DNA from: Aureococcus anophagefferens
Lineage: Eukaryota > Sar > Pelagophyceae > Pelagomonadales > Pelagomonadaceae
DNA length: 64,000 bases
Reading direction: 5' to 3'
Assembly: GCF_000186865.1 (NCBI RefSeq)
Contig: NW_008705566.1
Coordinates: 1,162,432-1,226,431 of the forward strand
Position numbers and translations under genes: made by a program. Every line of letters starts with the position of its first letter. The stretch's first letter is position 1. The notes under the pieces are model-generated. The model saw nothing but the letters and a program-made list of their open reading frames with translations, was not told the DNA's origin and did not search any database. Below, one piece after another: positions 48,160 to 57,447 of the stretch.

Positions 48160-50109
48160 ATGTTCCGCCGCGCCGTCGTCGCGCTCTCGGCCATCGTCGG
48201 GATGCGCGGCGCCGTCGCGCTCGTCGCGAGAGCGAGCGTCACGCGCGCGCGCGCGCGCGCGGCGACGCGCCTCGCGTCGGCGGCGCCGCGGAACCTGGAG
48301 GCGCTCGAGGCGGAGCTCGCGAAGCACGACGACCTCTACTACAACGCCGCGGCGCCGACGCTGAGCGACGGCGAGTACGACGCCCTCGCCGCGCGCGTCG
48401 ACGCGCTGCGCGCCGCGCACGCGCTCGCGCCGCGCGCCGTCGGCGCGAAGCGGAGCGGCAACTTCCGCGCGGCGGCGCCCCACGCGGCGCGCATGCTGTC
48501 CCTCGACGCCATCAAGGTCGGCGGCGACGGCGTCGAGGCCGCCGTCGCCAAGTGGCTGAAGAAGGCCCAGCGCGCCTGCAAGGGCGAGCCCCTCGGCGCC
48601 ATCGTCTGCGAGCCGAAGCTCGACGGCCTGTCCGTCTCGCTCCGCTACGAGGACGGCGCGCTCGTCCAGGCGGCGACGCGCGGCGACGGCGTCCAGGGCG
48701 ACGACGTCACGGCGAACGCGCGGGCCGTCGCGGGCGTCGTCGAGTCCCTGGGCGCGCGCGGCGCGGTGGAGATCCGCGGCGAGGTCTGCGTCGCGGTTCA
48801 AACGTTCCGCGAACTGGCGGGCGCGGACGCCGCGAACCCGCGCAACTACGCCGCCGGGTCCCTGCGCCAGAGCGACGCCGAGGAGACGCGCCGGCGCCGC
48901 CTGCGCTTCGTCGCCCACGACGCCGTCGGCGACGCGTTGGGAAACGCGTCGTTCGCCGAGAAGCGGGCAGCGCTCGACGCCTGGGGCTTCGAGGCCGCGC
49001 TGCCCGCGCGCGTCGTCGCCGTCGACGGCGACGACGTCGAGGCCTGCGCGCCGGCGCTCGCGGCCTACCACGCCGAGCTCGGCGCGCGGCGGCCGGCCGT
49101 GGACTCGCCGGCCGCCGACGAGCTCCGCTACGAGATCGACGGCGTCGTCTTCAAGGTCGACGCGGCCGCGGCGGCGCGGGCCGCGGGGTCCACGGCGCGC
49201 GCGCCGCGGTCGCGCGTGGCGCTCAAGTTCGAGGCCGAGGTCCTCGCGGCGACGACGCTCGAGGGCGTCGAGATCGGCGTCGGGAAACGCGGCGTGCTCA
49301 CGCCCGTCGCCAAGGTCGCGCCCGTCGCCGTGGGGGGCGTCGTCGTGCGGTCGGCGACGCTGCACAACTTCGCCATGCTCCGCAGTTGCCTCGGCGGCGC
49401 GGACGTCGGCGACGCGGTGCTCGTGAAGCGCGCGGGCGACGTCATCCCGCAGATCCGGCCCGCGGGCGGCGGGTCCAGGGTCTGGGCGCCGCCGGCGACC
49501 TGCCCGTGCTGCGGCGCGCGCACGGTCGTCGACGAGGACGCGGGCCGGGCGACGTGCCCCAACGGCGTGGGCTGCGACGACCAGGCCGCGGGGCGGCTCG
49601 CGCACTTCGTGGGGCGCGGCGCGATCGACCTCGCGTCGGGCGCGCTGGGGAAGAAGAAGCTGCGCCAGCTCGTGCGCGAGGGCGTCGCGCGGTCGCCCGC
49701 GGACCTCTTCGACCTGCTCGACGACCGGGACGCGGCGGCCCGGCGCCTCGAGGCGCTCGACGGCTGGGCGTCCACGTCCGCGGCGAAGCTCCTCGACGCG
49801 CTCGAGGCCCGCGCGGCGCGGCCGCTGCCCCTCGCGGACTTTGTGTACGCGCTCGGCGCGAACCGCGTCGGCAAGGCGACGGCGAAGCGCGTCGCGGCCC
49901 TCGCGGGGACCTGGGGCGCGCTCTGGGCCGCGCTCGACGCGGACGACGCGACGGCCGCGGGCGCGGACCTCCGCGCGGCGCTCGCGGACGCGCGCGGCGT
50001 CGGCGACGCGGCCCTCGCGGGCCTCCGCGAGCTCGCCGCGGACGCCGACGACCGCGACGTCGCCGCGCGCGCGGCCGCGCGGCTCGCGATCGCCCCCGAC
50101 GACGGCTAG
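48160..50109 (+). CDS. ligA: NAD+-dependent (bacterial-type) DNA ligase LigA, no BRCT
   Basis: 649 residues; seals nicks using NAD+, a type normally found in bacteria and some large viruses. Domain Ia: DLYYNAAAPTLSDGEYDAL. Nucleotidyl-transferase: CEPKLDGLSVSLRYEDGAL with the adenylated lysine in KLDG, ATRGDGVQGDDVTANAR, EIRGEVC, NPRNYAAGSLRQ, YEIDGVVFKVD. OB fold: VEIGVGKRGVLTPVAKVAPV. Four-cysteine zinc finger: CPCC, then CPNGVGC. Helix-hairpin-helix: FVYALGANRVGKATAKRVA. The C-terminal BRCT domain is absent. The first ~45 residues are arginine/alanine-rich, like an organelle targeting peptide. Base composition equals the neighbours. Confidence 0.92.
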   Translation: MFRRAVVALSAIVGMRGAVALVARASVTRARARAATRLASAAPRNLEALEAELAKHDDLYYNAAAPTLSDGEYDALAARVDALRAAHALAPRAVGAKRSGNFRAAAPHAARMLSLDAIKVGGDGVEAAVAKWLKKAQRACKGEPLGAIVCEPKLDGLSVSLRYEDGALVQAATRGDGVQGDDVTANARAVAGVVESLGARGAVEIRGEVCVAVQTFRELAGADAANPRNYAAGSLRQSDAEETRRRRLRFVAHDAVGDALGNASFAEKRAALDAWGFEAALPARVVAVDGDDVEACAPALAAYHAELGARRPAVDSPAADELRYEIDGVVFKVDAAAAARAAGSTARAPRSRVALKFEAEVLAATTLEGVEIGVGKRGVLTPVAKVAPVAVGGVVVRSATLHNFAMLRSCLGGADVGDAVLVKRAGDVIPQIRPAGGGSRVWAPPATCPCCGARTVVDEDAGRATCPNGVGCDDQAAGRLAHFVGRGAIDLASGALGKKKLRQLVREGVARSPADLFDLLDDRDAAARRLEALDGWASTSAAKLLDALEARAARPLPLADFVYALGANRVGKATAKRVAALAGTWGALWAALDADDATAAGADLRAALADARGVGDAALAGLRELAADADDRDVAARAAARLAIAPDDG

Positions 50110-50112
50110 GGG

Positions 50113-51360
50113 TTAGGACAGGGGCTTCTGGCGCACGCGGACGTTGAAGTTGAAGTGGGTCCGGAGGCCGCCGAACCAGTCCGCCGTGTTGCCGAGGCGG
50201 AGCACGGTCGGCAGCGGGTAGGGGCTCGGCGTGACGACGAGCTCGTCGCCGCGCTTGAGCTTGACGCGGTTGCGGCCGTCGAAGGTCGCCCAGGCGTCGG
50301 CGCGCGCGTCGCCGTCGACGACGAACTTGAGCTCCGCCGAGTCGGGGAAGACCATGGGCCGGAAGGAGAGGCTGTGGGGGCAAACGGGCGTGAAGACCAT
50401 CGCGTTCGCCGACGGGTGGACCATGGGCCCGCCCGCGGACAGCGAGTAGGCCGTCGACCCCGTCGGCGTCGCGACGATGATGCCGTCGGCCTGGGCCGTC
50501 GTCAGGTGCTCGTCGTTGCAGAAGCACTCGACCGCGGACAGGAACTCGGAGTCGCCGCGGTTCACGACGACCTCGTTCAGCGCCTCGTGCCGCGCCAGGA
50601 CGTCGCCCGAGCCGCCGTCGAAGACCGTGCACCGCAGGCGCATGCGCAGGGACACGGGCCAGGGCGGCGGCGGCCGCGACGCGCCGCGCTCGAGCCCCGC
50701 GGCCAGGCCCATCGCGTTCTCGACGCCCCCGTCTGCGCTCTCGTCGTACGCGTCGAAGGGCGCGAGGAACCCCAGGCTCCCCGCGGAGAAGGCGATGACG
50801 GGTGGCGGCGCCGTGCGCTGGAAGAGCGCGTTCGCGTAGAGCAGCAGCCCGTCGCCGCCGATCGTCGCGAGGAAGTCCGGCCGCCGCTCGCCGTCGTCCT
50901 CCGACTCCCAGAGCGCCGCGGCGATGCCCCGGTCCGCGAGCCGCGCCCGGGCCCGGCTGTAGAGCGGCTCGGCCAGGAGGATGTCGATGCCCAGGCCCGC
51001 GATCACGCGCGCGACCTCGGACGCGACCCGGAGCTCCGCGTCGTCCATCGACTTCTTCGCGAGCACGAGCGCGCGCCGCGGGGGCCGGCTCCAGGTCACC
51101 TTGTAGGTCGCCGCGGCCGTGCAGCGCAGATACGTCTCGTCGGCGACGTCGCAGGGCTCGCGCCCCTCGCCCATGGTCCGCACGAAGCACCAGGCGTCGC
51201 TCGTCGGCGCCTCCTTGCCGTACGTCCACCCGGGCGTCGACGACGACTGCGTCGACGACAGTTTCGTCAGGCATCGTCGCGGTGGCGGTGCGAGGCCGAG
51301 GGCCAGGTGCAGGCACAGCGCCGCGAGCTGCGGTGCGCGCCGGCCGCGCGACGACGCCAT
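50113..51360 (-). CDS. NAD kinase, secretory/plastid leader
   Basis: 415 residues from ATG 51360, chosen because it gives a signal-like N-terminus (APQLAALCLHLALGLAPPPR). NAD kinase phosphorylates NAD+ to NADP+. Seen: TIGGDGLLLYANALFQ (GGDGT variant), AFSAGSLGFLAPFD, NEVVVNRGDSEFLSAV and ADGIIVATPTGSTAYSLSAG, the conserved diphosphate/ribose-binding segments in order. The leader suggests plastid import. Its stop is 3 bp from that of the NAD+-dependent ligase, and it runs convergently. Confidence 0.88.
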   Translation of the reverse strand: MASSRGRRAPQLAALCLHLALGLAPPPRRCLTKLSSTQSSSTPGWTYGKEAPTSDAWCFVRTMGEGREPCDVADETYLRCTAAATYKVTWSRPPRRALVLAKKSMDDAELRVASEVARVIAGLGIDILLAEPLYSRARARLADRGIAAALWESEDDGERRPDFLATIGGDGLLLYANALFQRTAPPPVIAFSAGSLGFLAPFDAYDESADGGVENAMGLAAGLERGASRPPPPWPVSLRMRLRCTVFDGGSGDVLARHEALNEVVVNRGDSEFLSAVECFCNDEHLTTAQADGIIVATPTGSTAYSLSAGGPMVHPSANAMVFTPVCPHSLSFRPMVFPDSAELKFVVDGDARADAWATFDGRNRVKLKRGDELVVTPSPYPLPTVLRLGNTADWFGGLRTHFNFNVRVRQKPLS

Positions 51361-51432
51361 GTTGGGAGGCAGCTCCAGATTGCCACTGCACGATGGGCGA
51401 AGTTTGCCGGTGCGATGCGTGTTGACGCCGAC

Positions 51433-51556
51433 CTTGCATCTCTGAATTCTCGCGGTCTGGGGCTGCTCGCAGAGCGTCTCTACGTCTCCGCCGTCTTGCA
51501 CCTTGCATCTCTGAGTTCTCGCGTCTGGGGCTGCCTCGCGGAGCGTCTCCGTACCC
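51433..51556. repeat. ~69-bp tandem duplication in a divergent promoter region
   Basis: CCTTGCATCTCTGAATTCTC (about 51433) recurs as CCTTGCATCTCTGAGTTCTC (about 51502), followed in both by TCTGGGGCTG and AGCGTCTC. It sits in the 211-bp gap between the NAD kinase and beta-galactosidase starts, so it may duplicate promoter sequence. Confidence 0.75.
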
Positions 51557-51571
51557 CGAGATCTTCGCAAT

Positions 51572-53974
51572 ATGCTGCGCATCCTTGGGCTCGTCGTCGC
51601 CGTGGAGGCGGCCCTGGAGACCGCGACGCTGCCCACGTCCATCCCACGACCATCGACGAAGAACGTGTCCAACGTCTTCCACAACAACACCAGCCCGGAC
51701 AACATCACTATAACCGCCGACAGCAGATCGCTGCTCGTCGACGGCCGCCGCTGGTTTCCAGTCGACGGCGAGCTGCACTTCACGCGCGTGCCGCGATTCA
51801 TGTGGCGCGAGGAGCTCCGGCGCGTCAAGGCGGGCGGCTTGGATCAGGTCGCGACGTACGTCTTTTGGAACCACCACGAGGAGCTCCGCGGCGACTACGA
51901 TTTCTCCGGGCGGCGCGACCTGCGCGCGTTCCTCGAGACCGCGCGCGACGTCGGCCTGAAGGTGCTCCTGCGGCTCGGGCCGTGGTCCCACGGCGAGGCG
52001 AAGAACGGAGGGCACCCCGACTGGGTCCTGGGCGACGACGAGCCCTGCGGCGCGAAGCTCCGGTCCTTGGACGCGCGATACATGGCCTGCGTCGATGCGT
52101 GGTTCGGGCGCCTCGGCGAGGAGCTGGCGGGTCTCTTCTGGCGGGACGGCGGCCCCGTCTGGGCCGTCCAGCTCGACAACGAGATCGGCGACTGGAAGTA
52201 CCTGCTGGGTCTCCGCGAGATCGCGCTGTCGTACGACATCGCGCCCGCGGCCTTCACGAAGACGGGCTGGCCGAACCCGGACGCCGGGTATCCGGCACGC
52301 TACCCCATGCTTCCCTTCTTCGGGGGCTACGCGGACGCTTCCTGGACGAACGACATGAAGGATCAGATCCAAGCGAACACGTTCGAGTTCCACAAAGGCC
52401 CGATGATGCTCCTCGGAGAAGGCCCGGATCCGACGTGCCCGGGATGTTATCCGCTCGTGCCGGGCTTCCCGTGGCTGGACGTGGAGATGGGCGGCGGCAT
52501 GAACAGCGACTACAACCACAGAACGCACTTGGAACCCCTGGACATGGAAGCCCTCGCGCTCTGCACGGTCGGCGGCGGCTCCAACGGCGTCGGCTATTAC
52601 ATGTACCACGGCGGCAATAATCCCCACTCCAAGCAACACGACGTCGCGGGCGACGCGCTCCGGGACGCGCCGAACGTGACGCTCCAGGAATCCGCGTGGT
52701 CCGCGGCGGGCACGCAGAATCCCACGACGTCTTCGTCCTACGACTACTTCGCGCCGCTCGGCGAGTTCGGCCAGCCCCGCGGCCACTACCACGGGCTCAA
52801 GGCCTTGCATTTGATGCTCCGCGCCTGGGGCGACGTGCTCGCGGACGCCGTCCCCGTCCCCGGCGGCGGCGACGACGGGCCGACGGCGCTGCGCTGGGCC
52901 GCGCGCGCGTCGCCCGCGGGCACGTTCCTCTTCGTCAACAACTACCAGCGCGGCGCGACGCTCCCGCCCAAGACCGACGTCCGCTTCGCGCTCGAGCGGG
53001 GCGACGCGACGCTCGCCGTGCCGTCGAACGGCAGCGCGCCGCTGACGATCGACTCGAACGCGTCCTTCGTCTGGCCCGTCGACGTCGCGCTCCCCGTCGG
53101 CCGCATCGCCTGGGCGACGGCGCAGCTGCTGACGCGGACGGACGGCGTCGTCTTCCTCCTCGAGACGCCCGGGTTCTCGGAGGTCGCGCTCGATCTGGGG
53201 TCGGCGGCGCTCGACACGACCGCGGCGCGGACCGACGAGGGCGGCGTCGCCGTGCTCCGCGGCGTGAAACCGTCGCTCGCGCCCTTCGCCACGATCCGCG
53301 AAAACGGCCGCGAGGTCTCGCTCGTGCTCCTCGCCGCGGAGTACGTGGACCGCGTCTGGACCGACGAGGACGCTTCGCCGCGCCGCGTCTTCGTCTCGTC
53401 TCCGGGGACGCTGTTCGTGCTCCCCGACGGCGACCGCGTCGACCTCCGCCTCGACGACGGTAACGCGCGAGCCACCCTCCTCGTCTGCCCGCCGCCGGCC
53501 GGGGGGACGGGCGTCTTCGGCGCCGTAGACGAAGTCGACCTGCCCGCGCTCGACCCGCCGCGGCCGGCGGTCCGACTCGTCAAGCCCTTCGCGACGCCCG
53601 TGCGATCCATCCCCGTCGTCAAGTCGAGCGGCAAACCCCGCGAGCCGGACTTGGACGACTGGCTCGGGGCCGCGGAATACGAGATCAACGTGACGCTCCC
53701 GCCGGGCGCCGAGTGGCGGCTCCGCGTCGACTACGCGGGAGACGCCGCGCGCGTGCTCTTCGAGGACCGTCTGCTGACCGACAACTGGTACACGGGCTAC
53801 GAAACCTCCGGCGGCCTCGAGGTCGGCCTGAGCTTCCTCGCCGACGAGAACCCGGGGCTCCTCGGCGGCACGACGACGCTTCGTCTCCTCGTCCTGCCGC
53901 TCCAGAAGAAGGCCCTCGAAGGCAACGTCTTCCTCGACGAGATCGCGGTCCGCCCGGCGAACGTTAATCTTTAG
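51572..53974 (+). CDS. Glycoside hydrolase family 35 beta-galactosidase, secreted
   Basis: 800 residues with a signal peptide (MLRILGLVVAVEAALE). The GH35 barrel shows DGRRWFPVDGELHFTRVPRF, MWREELRRVKAGGLDQVATY, VFWNHHE, LRLGPWSHGE, and the acid/base glutamate in VWAVQLDNEIGD (family: Q.ENE.G). WLDVEMGGGMNSDYNH holds the probable nucleophile. Beta-sandwich domains follow (WRLRVDYAGDAARVLFEDRL). N-glycosylation sequons occur near the N-terminus. It would remove terminal beta-galactose from extracellular or vacuolar glycans. Its TAG stop overlaps the TAA of the UvrC-UvrB gene in TTAG. Confidence 0.85.
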   Translation: MLRILGLVVAVEAALETATLPTSIPRPSTKNVSNVFHNNTSPDNITITADSRSLLVDGRRWFPVDGELHFTRVPRFMWREELRRVKAGGLDQVATYVFWNHHEELRGDYDFSGRRDLRAFLETARDVGLKVLLRLGPWSHGEAKNGGHPDWVLGDDEPCGAKLRSLDARYMACVDAWFGRLGEELAGLFWRDGGPVWAVQLDNEIGDWKYLLGLREIALSYDIAPAAFTKTGWPNPDAGYPARYPMLPFFGGYADASWTNDMKDQIQANTFEFHKGPMMLLGEGPDPTCPGCYPLVPGFPWLDVEMGGGMNSDYNHRTHLEPLDMEALALCTVGGGSNGVGYYMYHGGNNPHSKQHDVAGDALRDAPNVTLQESAWSAAGTQNPTTSSSYDYFAPLGEFGQPRGHYHGLKALHLMLRAWGDVLADAVPVPGGGDDGPTALRWAARASPAGTFLFVNNYQRGATLPPKTDVRFALERGDATLAVPSNGSAPLTIDSNASFVWPVDVALPVGRIAWATAQLLTRTDGVVFLLETPGFSEVALDLGSAALDTTAARTDEGGVAVLRGVKPSLAPFATIRENGREVSLVLLAAEYVDRVWTDEDASPRRVFVSSPGTLFVLPDGDRVDLRLDDGNARATLLVCPPPAGGTGVFGAVDEVDLPALDPPRPAVRLVKPFATPVRSIPVVKSSGKPREPDLDDWLGAAEYEINVTLPPGAEWRLRVDYAGDAARVLFEDRLLTDNWYTGYETSGGLEVGLSFLADENPGLLGGTTTLRLLVLPLQKKALEGNVFLDEIAVRPANVNL

Positions 53975-56900
53975 CTATACGTCCCGTTCACGATGGCCAG
54001 CACCGCGTCGCCGTAGCGCGCGGACTTCTTGGGCCCGATGCCGTGGACCGCGAGGAGCGCGGACTCGTTGGCCGGCCGCAGCTGGACGACGTTCTCCAAC
54101 GTCTTCTGGTTGAGCACCATGAAGGGCCGCTTCCCCAGCGACGCCGCGGTGAGCTTCCGCCAGTCGCGGAGCGCGTCGTAGAGCGCGGCGTCGACGGGAT
54201 CGGCGAAGTCGGGCGCGTAGGTACCGCCTTCGGGCTTCGACGGGCCGAGGAGGTCGAGGATCTCCGTGTTCTCCGCGGACTTGTTCCGGCCCGCGCCGAC
54301 GGGCACGACGTCGTGCCGCGCGTTGTGGTCGAGCTGGACGGCGCGCCGGTAGTTCGTCTCGTCGATGGCCTCGCGCATCGCGTCGCTGACGGTCCCGTCG
54401 TCCGTGTAGAGCAGCACGCGGCCGTCGACGTGGCGCGCGGCGCGGCCGATGGTCTGGATCAGCGACGTCGCCGACCGCAGGAACCCCTGCTTCTCCGCGC
54501 CGACGACGGCGACGAGCGACACCATCGGCAGGTCCAGACCCTCGCGCAGCAGGTTGCATCCCACGAGCGCCTGGAGCTCGCCCGCCTTGAGGCGCCGGAG
54601 CGCGTCCAAACGCTTACCGGAGTCGAGGCCGCTGTGCAAATACGTCGCGGCGACGCCGTTCTCCGTGAGCAGGTCCGCGATGCCCTCGGCCGACGCTTTC
54701 GTCAGCGTCGTCACGAGCGCGCGGTCGCCCGCGGCCGCGGCCGCGGCGACGCGCGCGAGGAGGTGGTCCTCGAGCCCGCCGGCGGCGGCGGCGTCGACGA
54801 CGGACACGACGGGGTCGACGACGCCCGTGGGACGCACGATCAGCGACGTCACGGCGTCGTCGCCGCACATGTCGAAGACGTCCGCGTTCGGCGTCGCCGT
54901 CGCGAAGACGCACTGGGGGACCTTGGCCCAGAACTCCGCGTCCGTCAGCGGCCGGTTGTCCAGCGCGGACTTGAGGCGGAAGCCGTTCTCGACGAGCGAC
55001 GTCTTGCGCGCGCGGTCGCCCGCGTGCATGCCGCGGAGCTGGGGCACGGCGACGTGGGCCTCGTCGACGACGAGGAGCCAGTCGTCGTCCGGGAAGAAGT
55101 CCACCAGCGTCGCGGGCGCCTCGCCCGCCGCGCGCCGCGACACGTGGCGCGCGTAGTTCTCCATACCCGGGCAGAACCCGCGCCGCCGCATGTCGTCGAC
55201 GTCGGCTAAGACGCGCTGCTCGAGGCGCCGCGCCTCGCGGAACCGCCCCGCGGCGCGGAACGCCGCGAGGTCGTCGTCGAGTTCCTCGAGCACGGCTTGG
55301 GCGACGCGCTCGATCTCCTCGGCCGTCGCCACGTAGTGCGACGCGGGGTACAACACGTACTCGTCGACGGACCTCGCGTCGTCGGCTACGATCGACACGT
55401 CGGACACGAGCAGCGCGTCGTCGCCGGCCTCGACGCTGATTTTGAGCGTCGCGGGCTCCGTGACCAGGCCCACGGACAGCGCCGCGCCGTCGTCGGTCCA
55501 CGCGAAGCCGCCGCGGTCCGCGCCGTCCGCGCCGTAGCGGAGCGCGAGCATCGCGGCCTCGAGCTCGCTTCGACCCGTCCAGGACTGGCCCGGGTGGACG
55601 AGCAGCGCCGACGACAGGTACTCCTCGGGCATGCCCAACCCGTAGATGCACGACACCGTCGCGACGACGATCGTGTCGCGCCGCTCGTTTAGGGATCGCG
55701 TCGCGTCGTGGCGGAGCGCGTCGATCCGGTCGTTCGTCGCGGAGCGCTTCTCCGAGTACGTGTCGGACGCGAGCTTGTAGCTCTCGGGCCGGTAGTAGTC
55801 GAAGTGGGACACGAAGAATTTCACGGCGGCGTCGGGGAAGAACTCGCGGAGCTCCGAATAGAGCTGCGCCGCGAGGACCTTGTTCGGCGCTAAGACGAGA
55901 GTCGGTTTGTCCAACTGTTCGATCGCGTGGGCCAAAACGAACGTCTTGCCCGTGCCCGTCGCTCCTTTCAGGACGACGCGGCGCTCGCCGCGGCCGAGGC
56001 GGCCGACGAGCGAATCGATGGCGGCCGGCTGGTCGCCCGCCGGCGGGAAGGGCGCGCGCATCGAGAACGATCGCGCGACCGTGGACGCGATGGGCGCGCG
56101 AGACTTGGCGATCGGCTCGGCGACGGCCGCCGGCCGCGGCGCCGCGATCTCCGACGGCAGCGCCGGCGCGGACCAGGGCCCCAGCGCGGCGTCGACGTCG
56201 CCGGCGACGACGGCGACGAGGAGCGCGTCGAGGTTGCCGCGGTCCGCCGTCGCCAAGCGTAAATCCCTCCTAGACTTCCACCACCGCCGCGCGCGCGCCT
56301 CGTCGCCCGCCGCGTCGAGCGACACCGCGGACCGCCGGCCGTCGGCCGCGAGTGCCTCCACGGCCGAGTCGCGGTTGCCCAGGGAGACGGCGACGTCGCG
56401 GTTGTCGGCGTCGCCCGATGTCTCCAGCCGCGCCCGGACCGCGGTCGCGACGTCGAAAGGCACGACCGCCGCCAACTCCTCGACGGACGCGGCGCGGAGC
56501 CGCGCGCCGCTGGGAAAGGCGGCGCGGAGCCGCGCCTTGTGCCGCGTCGACGCGCCGTCGAGGAGCGACGCGTGTTCGCCGAAGCGCCGCGACCGGCGGT
56601 GCGCGAGGAGCGCGGACGCGTGCGCCTCGTCTCGCAGCCGCCGGAGCAGCGTCAGCGTCGGGTCGTGGTCCGCGAGGTTCAACTCGCCGCCGGCGCCGAA
56701 GTGCACGGTCTCCTCGCGCTTCGCGAGCGCCAGCGCCCGCACGTCCGCGCCCGACGCCTCGATGACGCGCCGCGCCGCGTTGAGCTGGCCCCGGCCGCCG
56801 TCGATGAGCACGCAATCCGGCGGCGGCCGGTCAAGCGCGAGCCGCGCCTCCAGGCTCTCGGCGATGGCCGCGCAGTCGTCGATGGCGCCGGAGCCCAGGC

Positions 56901-57324
56901 CGTACCAGCGGTACTCGTCCGTCGCGAGGAGGCCGCGGTCCGCGGCCGCGGACGCGCCGACGGTGTGCGCGCCGCAAAAGTGCGACACGTCGAGCGCCTC
57001 GATGCGCGCCGGCGGCGCGAAGGCGTCGCCCTCCCAGAAGACGCGCAACCCCTCGAGCGCCTCGACGGTCTCGGCCGCGCGCCACGCGCCCTCGTCGGCC
57101 GCCGCGAGCGCCTCCGCGCTCGACGCCGCGGCCGCGGCCGCCGCCGCCGCGGCGTCGGGCAGCGCGAGGCGCGCGGGGCCGCGCGCGTCCAGCGGCCAGG
57201 CCTCGATCTTTTGCGTCTGCGGGAAGCCGCGCGACGCGTACCAGCTCGAGAGCACGAGCGTCTCCACCGTGCGCGCGACGCCGCGCAGCCAGCGGTGCGA
57301 GACGACGCGGTGGGCGACCACCAT
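53971..57324 (-). CDS. UvrC(C-half)-UvrB-HRDC fusion protein
   Basis: 1,117 residues in one uninterrupted frame. Residues ~1-290 match the UvrC C-terminal half: IEALDVSHFCGAHTVGA, DCVLIDGGRGQLNAARRVIE and LLRRLRDEAHASALLAHRRS keep the D-D-H of the RNase H-like 5' nuclease, with a degenerate helix-hairpin-helix (LRAASVEELAAVVPF). The GIY-YIG 3' nuclease is absent. Residues ~420-1030 are complete UvrB: GATGTGKT, the beta-hairpin region SHFDYYRPESYKLASDTYSE, GMENYARHVS, DEAHVAVPQLRGMHAGDRAR, RPTGVVDP and QTIGRAARHVDGRVLLY. An HRDC domain ends it (LRDWRKLTAASLGKRPF, ALLAVHGIGPKKSARYGDAV) instead of the UvrB UVR motif. Probably an organelle repair protein. Confidence 0.9.
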   Translation of the reverse strand: MVVAHRVVSHRWLRGVARTVETLVLSSWYASRGFPQTQKIEAWPLDARGPARLALPDAAAAAAAAAASSAEALAAADEGAWRAAETVEALEGLRVFWEGDAFAPPARIEALDVSHFCGAHTVGASAAADRGLLATDEYRWYGLGSGAIDDCAAIAESLEARLALDRPPPDCVLIDGGRGQLNAARRVIEASGADVRALALAKREETVHFGAGGELNLADHDPTLTLLRRLRDEAHASALLAHRRSRRFGEHASLLDGASTRHKARLRAAFPSGARLRAASVEELAAVVPFDVATAVRARLETSGDADNRDVAVSLGNRDSAVEALAADGRRSAVSLDAAGDEARARRWWKSRRDLRLATADRGNLDALLVAVVAGDVDAALGPWSAPALPSEIAAPRPAAVAEPIAKSRAPIASTVARSFSMRAPFPPAGDQPAAIDSLVGRLGRGERRVVLKGATGTGKTFVLAHAIEQLDKPTLVLAPNKVLAAQLYSELREFFPDAAVKFFVSHFDYYRPESYKLASDTYSEKRSATNDRIDALRHDATRSLNERRDTIVVATVSCIYGLGMPEEYLSSALLVHPGQSWTGRSELEAAMLALRYGADGADRGGFAWTDDGAALSVGLVTEPATLKISVEAGDDALLVSDVSIVADDARSVDEYVLYPASHYVATAEEIERVAQAVLEELDDDLAAFRAAGRFREARRLEQRVLADVDDMRRRGFCPGMENYARHVSRRAAGEAPATLVDFFPDDDWLLVVDEAHVAVPQLRGMHAGDRARKTSLVENGFRLKSALDNRPLTDAEFWAKVPQCVFATATPNADVFDMCGDDAVTSLIVRPTGVVDPVVSVVDAAAAGGLEDHLLARVAAAAAAGDRALVTTLTKASAEGIADLLTENGVAATYLHSGLDSGKRLDALRRLKAGELQALVGCNLLREGLDLPMVSLVAVVGAEKQGFLRSATSLIQTIGRAARHVDGRVLLYTDDGTVSDAMREAIDETNYRRAVQLDHNARHDVVPVGAGRNKSAENTEILDLLGPSKPEGGTYAPDFADPVDAALYDALRDWRKLTAASLGKRPFMVLNQKTLENVVQLRPANESALLAVHGIGPKKSARYGDAVLAIVNGTYS

Positions 57325-57350
57325 TGCAGGACGGGCGCTCTCGCTTGAAT

Positions 57351-57447
57351 GTGCACTGCTTACACGCTGCGGCCTGCCGCGCAGCTCACGAAGACAATGC
57401 GCACTGCTACACGCTGCGGACTGCCGCGCAGCTCACGAAGACGGCGC
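57351..57447. repeat. ~48-bp tandem duplication upstream of the UvrC-UvrB gene
   Basis: ACACGCTGCGGCCTGCCGCG and ACACGCTGCGGACTGCCGCG, each followed by CAGCTCACGAAGAC, lie 49 bp apart. They sit just 5' of the UvrC-UvrB start on the minus strand, in the gap shared with the small plus-strand ORF. Confidence 0.8.

What the first reader, a model, noticed from the sequence alone, without database searches (positions are those of the whole stretch)
53971..57324. UvrC nuclease half fused to complete UvrB and an HRDC domain in a eukaryotic nuclear gene
One 1,117-codon frame carries the UvrC RNase H-like endonuclease with its D-D-H residues, all major UvrB helicase motifs, and a C-terminal HRDC domain. 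The GIY-YIG nuclease that makes the 3' incision and the UVR motif that normally joins UvrB to UvrC are both missing. Physical fusion would make the UVR contact unnecessary. The protein could make only the 5' cut, or serve a different nick-directed role. The frame overlaps the stop of a eukaryotic-style secreted beta-galactosidase and shares the local composition, so it does not look like bacterial contamination.
Basis: partly seen in the sequence, partly recalled or inferred. Interest (0 to 1): 0.88.

Follow-up and report, generated by a model that had tools for sequence, protein, structure and literature searches.

The report
Algal UvrC–UvrB repair-enzyme fusion lacking UvrA
Several distantly related algae carry in their nuclear genomes a bacterial-type DNA-repair enzyme in which half of UvrC is fused to UvrB, apparently without the parts for the first cut and for the usual partner UvrA, which suggests a stripped-down, one-cut repair pathway.

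Summary
One 1,117-codon frame (57324 to 53971) joins the UvrC RNase H-like 5'-incision nuclease (D112, D175, H235 intact), the UvrB helicase and an HRDC domain; GIY-YIG and both UVR motifs are not detected. The window lies in a 49-Mb assembly matching Aureococcus anophagefferens, among eukaryotic genes. It is not a local accident: UvrC-half–UvrB fusions recur in haptophytes (Prymnesium, Diacronema), chlorarachniophytes ('Norri…', from a transcriptome; Amorphochlora), the green alga Cymbomonas (partial model) and unnamed sources, none listing GIY-YIG. Algal UvrB halves (6 rows) and UvrC halves (11 rows) each group apart from the bacterial rows used. UvrB is not 'complete': domain 2 (UvrB_inter) is not recognised and domain 4 is gone. 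The own genome gave no credible UvrA match, and its only GIY-YIG match looks like SLX1. Best reading: one ancient fusion kept a UvrA-independent part of UvrBC (helicase plus 5' nick) and shed the UvrA interface and 3'-cut module, probably for organelle DNA. Mechanism, location and substrate are inferred. I saw no description in the paper listings. Structure prediction and the Mfd search did not complete.

The parts
53971..57324 (-). Whole fusion ORF, 1,117 codons plus stop: UvrC C-terminal half, linker, UvrB without domain 4, HRDC
   Evidence: the ORF listing; Pfam; NCBIfam; single full-length copy in the genome
57016..57324 (-). N-terminal leader (residues 1-103); residues about 11-32 align with a segment shared with haptophyte-type relatives (P0004, P0005, P0191, P0193, P0198, P0199)
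   Evidence: alignment A2; no in-frame upstream ATG before a stop
56611..57015 (-). UvrC RNase H-like 5'-incision nuclease domain (residues 104-238)
   Evidence: PF08459 4.7e-27; 2nrt E 2.6e-25
56989..56991 (-). Presumed catalytic Asp D112
   Evidence: Asp in all 11 of 12 rows that have letters there; P0123 is truncated
56800..56802 (-). Presumed catalytic Asp D175
   Evidence: 12 of 12
56620..56622 (-). Presumed catalytic His H235
   Evidence: 12 of 12
56419..56589 (-). Degenerate (HhH)2 region (residues 246-302): aligns to the last part of UvrC models, but the hairpin glycines are lost
   Evidence: UvrC profile match to residue 302; alignment; no HHH Pfam match in this stretch
54283..56067 (-). 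UvrB helicase (residues 420-1014): Walker A, beta-hairpin, DEAH, QTIGRAAR motifs
   Evidence: NF003673 3.5e-201; 2fdc E 2.9e-163; alignment
55330..55617 (-). Position of UvrB domain 2 (binds UvrA in bacteria, recalled), not recognised by UvrB_inter PF17757
   Evidence: identity-only control weak
53989..54189 (-). HRDC domain (residues 1046-1112) in the place of UvrB domain 4/UVR
   Evidence: PF00570 3e-18; RecQ HRDC 2ma1 E 1.7e-12
48160..50109 (+). Context, not shown to belong: bacterial-type NAD+-dependent DNA ligase (LigA) gene 3.9 kb beyond the 3' end of the fusion ORF
   Evidence: PRK07956 2.7e-118, above its cut-off; DNA_ligase_aden 1e-49

Best explanation
[quoted passage not shown] It works as a UvrA-independent, ATP-driven 5'-nicking nuclease. 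The UvrB helicase, freed of its autoinhibitory domain 4, loads at distorted, opened or already nicked DNA, stalls at the lesion, and its tethered RNase H-like domain nicks the damaged strand a few bases 5' of it. The 3' side is either an existing nick or is not cut, and the damaged stretch is removed from the 5' nick by a 5'-3' exonuclease or strand displacement, then filled and ligated. HRDC supplies ssDNA binding in place of UVR and of the decayed (HhH)2. It most likely acts on organelle DNA. Shown: fusion, domain losses by profile, conserved active-site residues, several algal lineages, no credible UvrA match in this genome. Inferred: single origin, activity, direction, substrate, partners, location.
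For: Fusion and losses. Family: 16 of the 120 rows listed (232 passed) have UvrC_RNaseH plus helicase domains, and none of the 16 lists GIY-YIG, UVR or UvrB_inter; the 6 named ones are algae. Informative for UVR and UvrB_inter are 7 of the 16 (P0001, P0002, P0004, P0005, P0121, P0122, P0123), because P0191-P0199 lack the second half of UvrB. One member has a transcriptome accession (P0121). Conserved D-D-H. Each half groups as algae apart from the bacterial rows used (UvrB 6 rows 100/100; UvrC 11 rows 99/97). UvrA: PF17755 none; TIGR00630 only fragments of 22-37 bits over 62-88 of 924 positions. The only UvrC match is this gene, model 382-574. GIY-YIG: one match, SLX1-like. Literature seen: UvrBC binds lesions without UvrA (PMC5814901 abstract) and was reported to cut duplex only after a 3' cut or at a bubble (same, one section); without UvrA, E. 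coli UvrBC cuts 5' to existing nicks (PMC8837605 passage); (HhH)2 serves the 5' cut (PMC7835731 section 6); domain 4 autoinhibits UvrB. A 5'-3' exonuclease gene is present.
Against: No biochemistry, expression or localisation data. PMC5814901 states there is no evidence that UvrBC alone excises damage, and with Deinococcus enzymes no incision was seen without UvrA (PMC8837605 passage). By plain identity, domain 2 is not clearly more diverged than in other diverged UvrBs (7 rows, -2.3 to +0.7 sd). (HhH)2, needed for the 5' cut in bacteria, is decayed here. The window's N-terminus is short and not obviously a presequence. HRDC does not always pair with (HhH)2 loss: Amorphochlora P0122 has lost the first hairpin and has no HRDC. 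One annotated Aureococcus model (P0003, 627 aa) holds only UvrB-HRDC. Only 10 of 34 UvrA candidates were scored, exon-by-exon search can miss a split gene, and UvrA in the other algae was not tested.
Confidence: 0.47

Rival explanations
1. A disguised but otherwise ordinary dual-incision UvrABC pathway: UvrA and a GIY-YIG nuclease exist but were missed (introns, divergence, assembly gap), and the fusion simply does the work of UvrB and UvrC's 5' half.
For: Own-genome search works exon by exon, and for the full UvrA model only 10 of 34 candidates were scored; the genome holds one GIY-YIG protein.
Against: The UvrA searches ring in 13 of 14 and 14 of 14 control genomes, all prokaryotic, but here only short ABC-cassette fragments appear; three of the loci read in frame (L009, L011, L012) look like ABC transporters (by eye). 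The GIY-YIG protein has a C-terminal RING/PHD-like Cys pattern as in SLX1 (by eye and recall). UvrB_inter and UVR are not found in the five other fusions with a full-length UvrB that I scanned (P0004, P0005, P0121, P0122, P0123), hard to explain if UvrA and a 3' cut were still used.
Confidence: 0.17
2. Not damage excision: a nick- or junction-directed nuclease-helicase for other organelle DNA work (recombination intermediates, R-loops, replication forks, protein-DNA adducts), for which HRDC is the recruiting domain.
For: HRDC matches RecQ helicases; UvrBC without UvrA cuts near nicks and ends without damage (PMC8837605 passage); no damage-recognition partner found; hairpin tyrosine Y92 is changed in 5 of 8 and Y93 is F in 4 of 8 rows.
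Against: The rest of the UvrB lesion-probing hairpin is kept (Y96 in 8 of 8, Y or F at 95 in 8 of 8). Three scanned members with full UvrB lack HRDC (P0121, P0122, P0123).
Confidence: 0.25
3. The nuclease half is a passenger: the protein is a helicase or scaffold and no longer cuts.
For: Degenerate (HhH)2, needed for the 5' cut in bacteria (PMC7835731 section 6; alignment); no GIY-YIG.
Against: D-D-H is unchanged wherever letters exist in 12 rows, although most rows are only 34-46% identical to the window protein.
Confidence: 0.07
4. Bacterial contamination, mis-assembly or a dead gene.
For: UvrB and UvrC are bacterial families; one Aureococcus model lacks the UvrC half and another has stretches that look frame-shifted (P0003, P0002).
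Against: Contig C6 reaches beyond 2.6 Mb with eukaryotic neighbours (beta-adaptin, GH35, FSH1); GC3 as in neighbours; a 98% identical 1,117-aa protein P0001; related fusions in other named algae.
Confidence: 0.02

Closest known systems
Bacterial UvrC (C-terminal half: RNase H-like 5' nuclease plus (HhH)2)
   Same: Same domain, D-D-H conserved; matches UvrC models from about position 350-390 towards the end
   Different: No GIY-YIG or UVR detected; (HhH)2 decayed in the pelagophyte/haptophyte type; fused to UvrB
Bacterial UvrB
   Same: Helicase domains 1a, 1b and 3 with the main motifs; 46-50% identity to the UvrB-only proteins listed, of which those with an organism name are cyanobacterial
   Different: Domain 2 not recognised as UvrB_inter, domain 4/UVR absent, HRDC or another tail instead, fused behind UvrC
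E. coli UvrBC complex acting without UvrA (PMC5814901, abstract and one section)
   Same: UvrB and UvrC activities together on lesions or nicks without UvrA
   Different: Two proteins held by UVR contacts, with the 3' nuclease present; in bacteria a side activity, here apparently the only form
Cho (UvrC homologue)
   Same: A UvrC relative with only one of the two nucleases
   Different: Cho is the opposite half: GIY-YIG, with a Cho-specific C-terminal domain instead of the EndoV/RNase H-like one (family table, PMC1564403 passage)
UVDE-type single-nick excision repair
   Same: Proposed logic: one 5' nick, then strand removal (recalled, no call)
   Different: Unrelated nuclease; no UVDE match in this genome (that control rings in only 3 of 14 genomes)
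RecQ HRDC domain
   Same: Sequence match to RecQ HRDC structures
   Different: Attached to UvrB, not to a RecQ helicase

Membership tests
Bacterial UvrC | RNase H-like domain with D-D-H | tested here: met
Bacterial UvrC | N-terminal GIY-YIG nuclease | tested here: not met
   not listed with threshold 10; whole-genome UvrC search starts at model position 382
Bacterial UvrC | UVR motif | tested here: not met
   not listed
Bacterial UvrC | C-terminal (HhH)2 with hairpin glycines | tested here: not met
   region aligned but glycines lost in the window; first-hairpin G-V-G kept in P0121, P0123, P0197
Bacterial UvrB | Helicase motifs and beta-hairpin | tested here: met
   hairpin tyrosines partly substituted
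Bacterial UvrB | Domain 2 (UvrB_inter) | tested here: not met
   profile; identity-only test inconclusive; structure prediction did not complete
Bacterial UvrB | C-terminal UVR/domain 4 | tested here: not met
UvrABC excinuclease system | UvrA in the same genome | tested here: not met
   (exon-by-exon search of a 49-Mb assembly, 10 of 34 candidates scored; other algae not tested)
UvrABC excinuclease system | Dual incision on damaged DNA | not testable with these tools
   needs purified protein
UVDE pathway | UVDE nuclease in the genome | tested here: not met
   no candidate in the own genome
Organelle-targeted repair protein | Plastid or mitochondrial presequence | tested here: inconclusive
   D. 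lutheri P0005 starts with a hydrophobic then Arg/Ala-rich stretch (by eye); window N-terminus too short to judge; no predictor available
Transcription-coupled repair | Mfd | not tested
   search did not complete:

The most novel reading that the evidence does not exclude
Algae run a UvrA-free, single-protein excision system: one polypeptide verifies damage, opens DNA and makes only the 5' nick, after which organelle exonuclease, polymerase and ligase finish. It would be a third design of nucleotide excision repair, derived from the UvrBC side activity of bacteria and spread among algae with different plastids.
Probability: 0.33. Interest if true: 0.9.

Novelty: new variant of a known kind. Interest (0 to 1): 0.76.

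Why it matters
A review states that flowering plants encode no UvrA, UvrB or UvrC and that NER seems absent from their organelles (PMC6981420, passage). A nuclear UvrC-UvrB fusion shared by several algal groups says that some photosynthetic eukaryotes kept or gained part of bacterial excision repair and rebuilt it. It also offers a natural experiment on an open question: what UvrBC does without UvrA (PMC5814901, one section). One purified protein could test UvrA-independent verification and 5' nicking directly. Public records call family members 'Type III restriction enzyme', 'DNA helicase', 'Excinuclease ABC subunit' or hypothetical, so the family is easy to overlook.

Tried and rejected
Contamination or mis-assembly: rejected. 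Hidden upstream GIY-YIG exon: the 513 bases up to the FSH1 stop hold only short open stretches, the genome-wide UvrC search finds no N-terminal half, and haptophyte-type relatives share the start region; an upstream exon for a targeting peptide remains possible. Separate GIY-YIG partner: the only match looks like SLX1. UvrA; of the 8 UvrA-candidate loci printed I judged only L009, L011 and L012, which read as transporters; the others were printed in frames that may not be the matched ones.

Domain-2 erosion by percent identity: weaker than it first looked; against the trend of 64 bacterial rows the fusion rows lie at -2.3 to +0.7 sd. I rely on the profile result, whose control was 4 of the 6 bacterial rows with the lowest domain-2 ratio.

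HRDC as strict replacement of (HhH)2: not strict, Amorphochlora P0122 is an exception.

Cyanobacterial origin: compatible, not shown. The UvrB-only rows with organism names in the 120 listed are cyanobacterial, and the algae are not nested in 19 other bacterial rows (100/98), but with three groups and no outgroup the tree cannot say more. All six algal branches are long, and three algal rows have odd composition. No cyanobacterial UvrC was identified for the UvrC tree.

Rad4 search uninformative, as no control rang. HRDC structure search in a wrong frame, repeated correctly. An algal paper that mentions uvrB/uvrC (PMC7705064) concerns only a 'UvrB/uvrC motif' gene in an expression list (passage).
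Full report
OBSERVATION. The open frame is real but lies on the minus strand: ATG at 57324, stop at 53973-53971, 1,117 aa. Pfam finds UvrC_RNaseH_dom at residues 104-238 (4.7e-27) and HRDC at 1046-1112 (3e-18), with helicase domains between. NCBIfam finds UvrB at 420-1014 (3.5e-201, but 670 bits against a cut-off of 743) and UvrC models only over their C-terminal part. PDB relatives are UvrB chains (best 2.9e-163), UvrC C-terminal-half chains (2nrt) and RecQ HRDC. D112, D175 and H235 lie in the stretches aligned with 2nrt (that these are the catalytic Asp-Asp-His is recalled). The frame meets the GH35 frame tail to tail with a 4-base overlap. GC3 is 0.96 against 0.90-0.99 in five neighbouring genes.

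NOT CONTAMINATION. The window is contig C6:1162432-1226431 of a 49.05-Mb, 86-contig assembly; C6 reaches beyond 2.6 Mb. Neighbours are beta-adaptin, GH35 beta-galactosidase, FSH1 hydrolase and NAD kinase. The species follows from a 98% identical unnamed protein (P0001) and a 90% identical protein named Aureococcus anophagefferens (P0002). The genome holds one full-length copy.

WHAT IS MISSING. GIY-YIG, UVR and UvrB_inter are not listed for the protein with the threshold set at 10, nor is UvrB_inter for the domain-2 segment alone (HMMER's filters drop most matches above about 0.1). Four bacterial UvrBs chosen because domain 2 is poorly conserved in them still score 60-71 bits. A plain identity comparison is less clear: 7 fusion rows lie between -2.3 and +0.7 sd of the trend from 64 bacterial rows. 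In bacteria domain 2 binds UvrA (recalled; Pfam's description is 'UvrB interaction domain').

PARTNERS IN THE SAME GENOME. UvrA_DNA-bind: no match, while 13 of 14 control genomes ring. Full UvrA model: 34 candidates, 10 scored, 10 weak fragments of 22-37 bits over 62-88 of 924 positions; three of those loci read as ABC transporters (by eye). UvrC model: this gene only, from model position 382 (12 of 14 controls ring). GIY-YIG: one match (2 candidates, both scored; 12 of 14 controls ring), in a protein with a C-terminal RING/PHD-like Cys pattern as in SLX1 (by eye). UVDE: none (3 of 14 controls ring). ERCC4-type nucleases: 4 places, so eukaryotic XPF/MUS81-type nucleases are present. A 5'-3' exonuclease gene of bacterial Pol I type exists, with a signal-like N-terminus read by eye. 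Mfd did not complete.

THE FAMILY. Searches find the same architecture elsewhere. Of the 120 rows listed (232 passed the threshold, 112 not shown), 16 carry UvrC_RNaseH together with helicase domains; none of the 16 lists GIY-YIG, UVR or UvrB_inter. Named are six: Aureococcus (P0002), Prymnesium parvum (P0004), Diacronema lutheri (P0005), a chlorarachniophyte whose source name begins 'Norri' (P0121; I read Norrisiella; its taxid is a chlorarachniophyte), Amorphochlora amoebiformis (P0122) and the green alga Cymbomonas tetramitiformis (P0197); Diacronema is a haptophyte. The other ten, P0001 among them, are unnamed. P0121 has a CAMPEP/MMETSP accession (a transcriptome project, recalled), so in that lineage both halves are one message. 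Limits: P0191-P0199 (9 rows) list no Helicase_C or UvrB domain, so their missing UVR, and for all but P0197 their missing UvrB_inter, says nothing; P0122 starts at the RNase H domain and P0123 inside it, so their missing GIY-YIG says nothing; proteins from metagenomes may be single exons. Rows against: P0003, an Aureococcus model with UvrB-HRDC only, and P0002, with stretches that look frame-shifted.

I scanned 8 of these besides the window: none has GIY-YIG, UVR or UvrB_inter at E<=0.1. HRDC is present in P0004 and P0005, absent in P0121, P0122 and P0123. A first (HhH)2 hairpin with G-V-G is kept in P0121, P0123 and P0197, which also match HHH_5 (9e-10, 7.5e-10, 2.6e-6), and lost in the window, P0001, P0004, P0005, P0191, P0193, P0198, P0199 and P0122. 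So HRDC tends to accompany loss of (HhH)2, with Amorphochlora P0122 as an exception (HHH_5 0.066, no HRDC).

HISTORY. In the UvrB tree (38 rows) the 6 algal rows are one side of a 100/100 branch; 12 cyanobacterial rows plus one unnamed row form a 100/98 group, 19 other bacterial rows another (100/98). In the UvrC tree (30 rows) 11 algal rows are one group at 99/97. In both, the two chlorarachniophytes pair and the pelagophyte groups with haptophyte-type rows. The simplest reading is one fusion inherited as a unit and moved among algae. A cyanobacterial or plastid source is plausible but not shown: algal branches are long, three algal rows have odd composition, and two algal joins are flagged as long branches meeting. 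The bacterial rows of both trees came from hit lists, not from a balanced sample.

MECHANISM. What was lost fits what the literature ties to UvrA and to the 3' cut, though not exclusively. UVR-UVR contact is required for the pre-incision complex, the 3' incision and an extra damage-independent 5' incision; (HhH)2 for ssDNA binding and the 5' incision, and perhaps the 3' cut in some contexts (PMC7835731, section 6). UvrB domain 4 suppresses its ATPase and translocase until UvrA and ssDNA relieve it (section 5). UvrBC without UvrA finds lesions (PMC5814901, abstract), but earlier work is quoted as finding no cut in damaged duplex unless there is a 3' cut or a bubble, and the authors see no evidence that UvrBC alone excises damage (one section); the review, citing that same paper, says UvrBC can perform NER without UvrA (passage). 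UvrBC cuts 5' to existing nicks, also without damage; the Deinococcus enzymes showed no incision without UvrA (PMC8837605, passages). I propose a constitutively active, UvrA-independent UvrB helicase tethered to a 5'-nicking nuclease, working at nicked or opened lesions, with the strand removed by a 5'-3' exonuclease or displacement. Each functional step is inference.

LOCATION. Organelle is favoured because the parts are bacterial-type, because eukaryotic nucleases serve the nucleus, and because D. lutheri P0005 begins with a hydrophobic then Arg/Ala-rich stretch (by eye). The window's own N-terminus does not decide it.

LITERATURE. Six full-text searches listed 20 of 114, 20 of 132, 15 of 204, 12 of 16, 10 of 11 and 6 of 6 papers; I saw none whose title or abstract opening describes a UvrB-UvrC fusion or UvrBC in algae. 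Only open-licence PMC papers are held and I opened six papers in all, in abstract, passages or sections, so this is not proof of novelty. A review says flowering plants encode no UvrA, UvrB or UvrC (PMC6981420, passage).

VERDICT. The fusion and its spread among algae are well supported (about 0.95). Ancient single fusion with loss of the UvrA and 3'-cut parts: about 0.7. The UvrA-independent 5'-nicking mechanism: 0.47, lowered from 0.50, and the novel case from 0.35 to 0.33, after re-reading that the UVR contact is tied to more than the 3' cut; rival 1 rose from 0.15 to 0.17 because only 10 of 34 UvrA candidates were scored.

Noticed in passing
window 48160-50109 (+): A bacterial-type NAD+-dependent DNA ligase (LigA) gene lies in this eukaryotic genome 3.9 kb from the fusion; its first ~45 residues are hydrophobic then Arg/Ala-rich, like a targeting peptide (by eye). 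Adenylation and OB domains match; no HhH or BRCT Pfam match was listed.
   Followed up: partly
window 57348-57442: A 47-base unit repeated twice (93% matches); its near edge is 23 bases upstream of the fusion's ATG. Nature unknown, possibly promoter, 5' UTR or intron sequence.
   Followed up: no
L017 1087-2070 (-): A 5'-3' exonuclease of the bacterial Pol I type as a separate 327-aa frame with a signal-like N-terminus; candidate for the strand-removal step.
   Followed up: partly
P0003 and P0002 (Aureococcus models): Public gene models of the same gene are named 'Type III restriction enzyme'; one starts only at UvrB, the other has stretches that look frame-shifted.
   Followed up: no
window 51572-53974 (+) and 53971-57324 (-): The GH35 frame and the fusion frame are convergent and overlap by 4 bases, stop codon against stop codon, so any 3' UTRs must overlap.
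   Followed up: yes
window 50113-51828 (-): The NAD kinase frame, as called from its TTG, overlaps the 5' part of the GH35 frame on the other strand by 257 bases; the true start of one of them is probably elsewhere.
   Followed up: no
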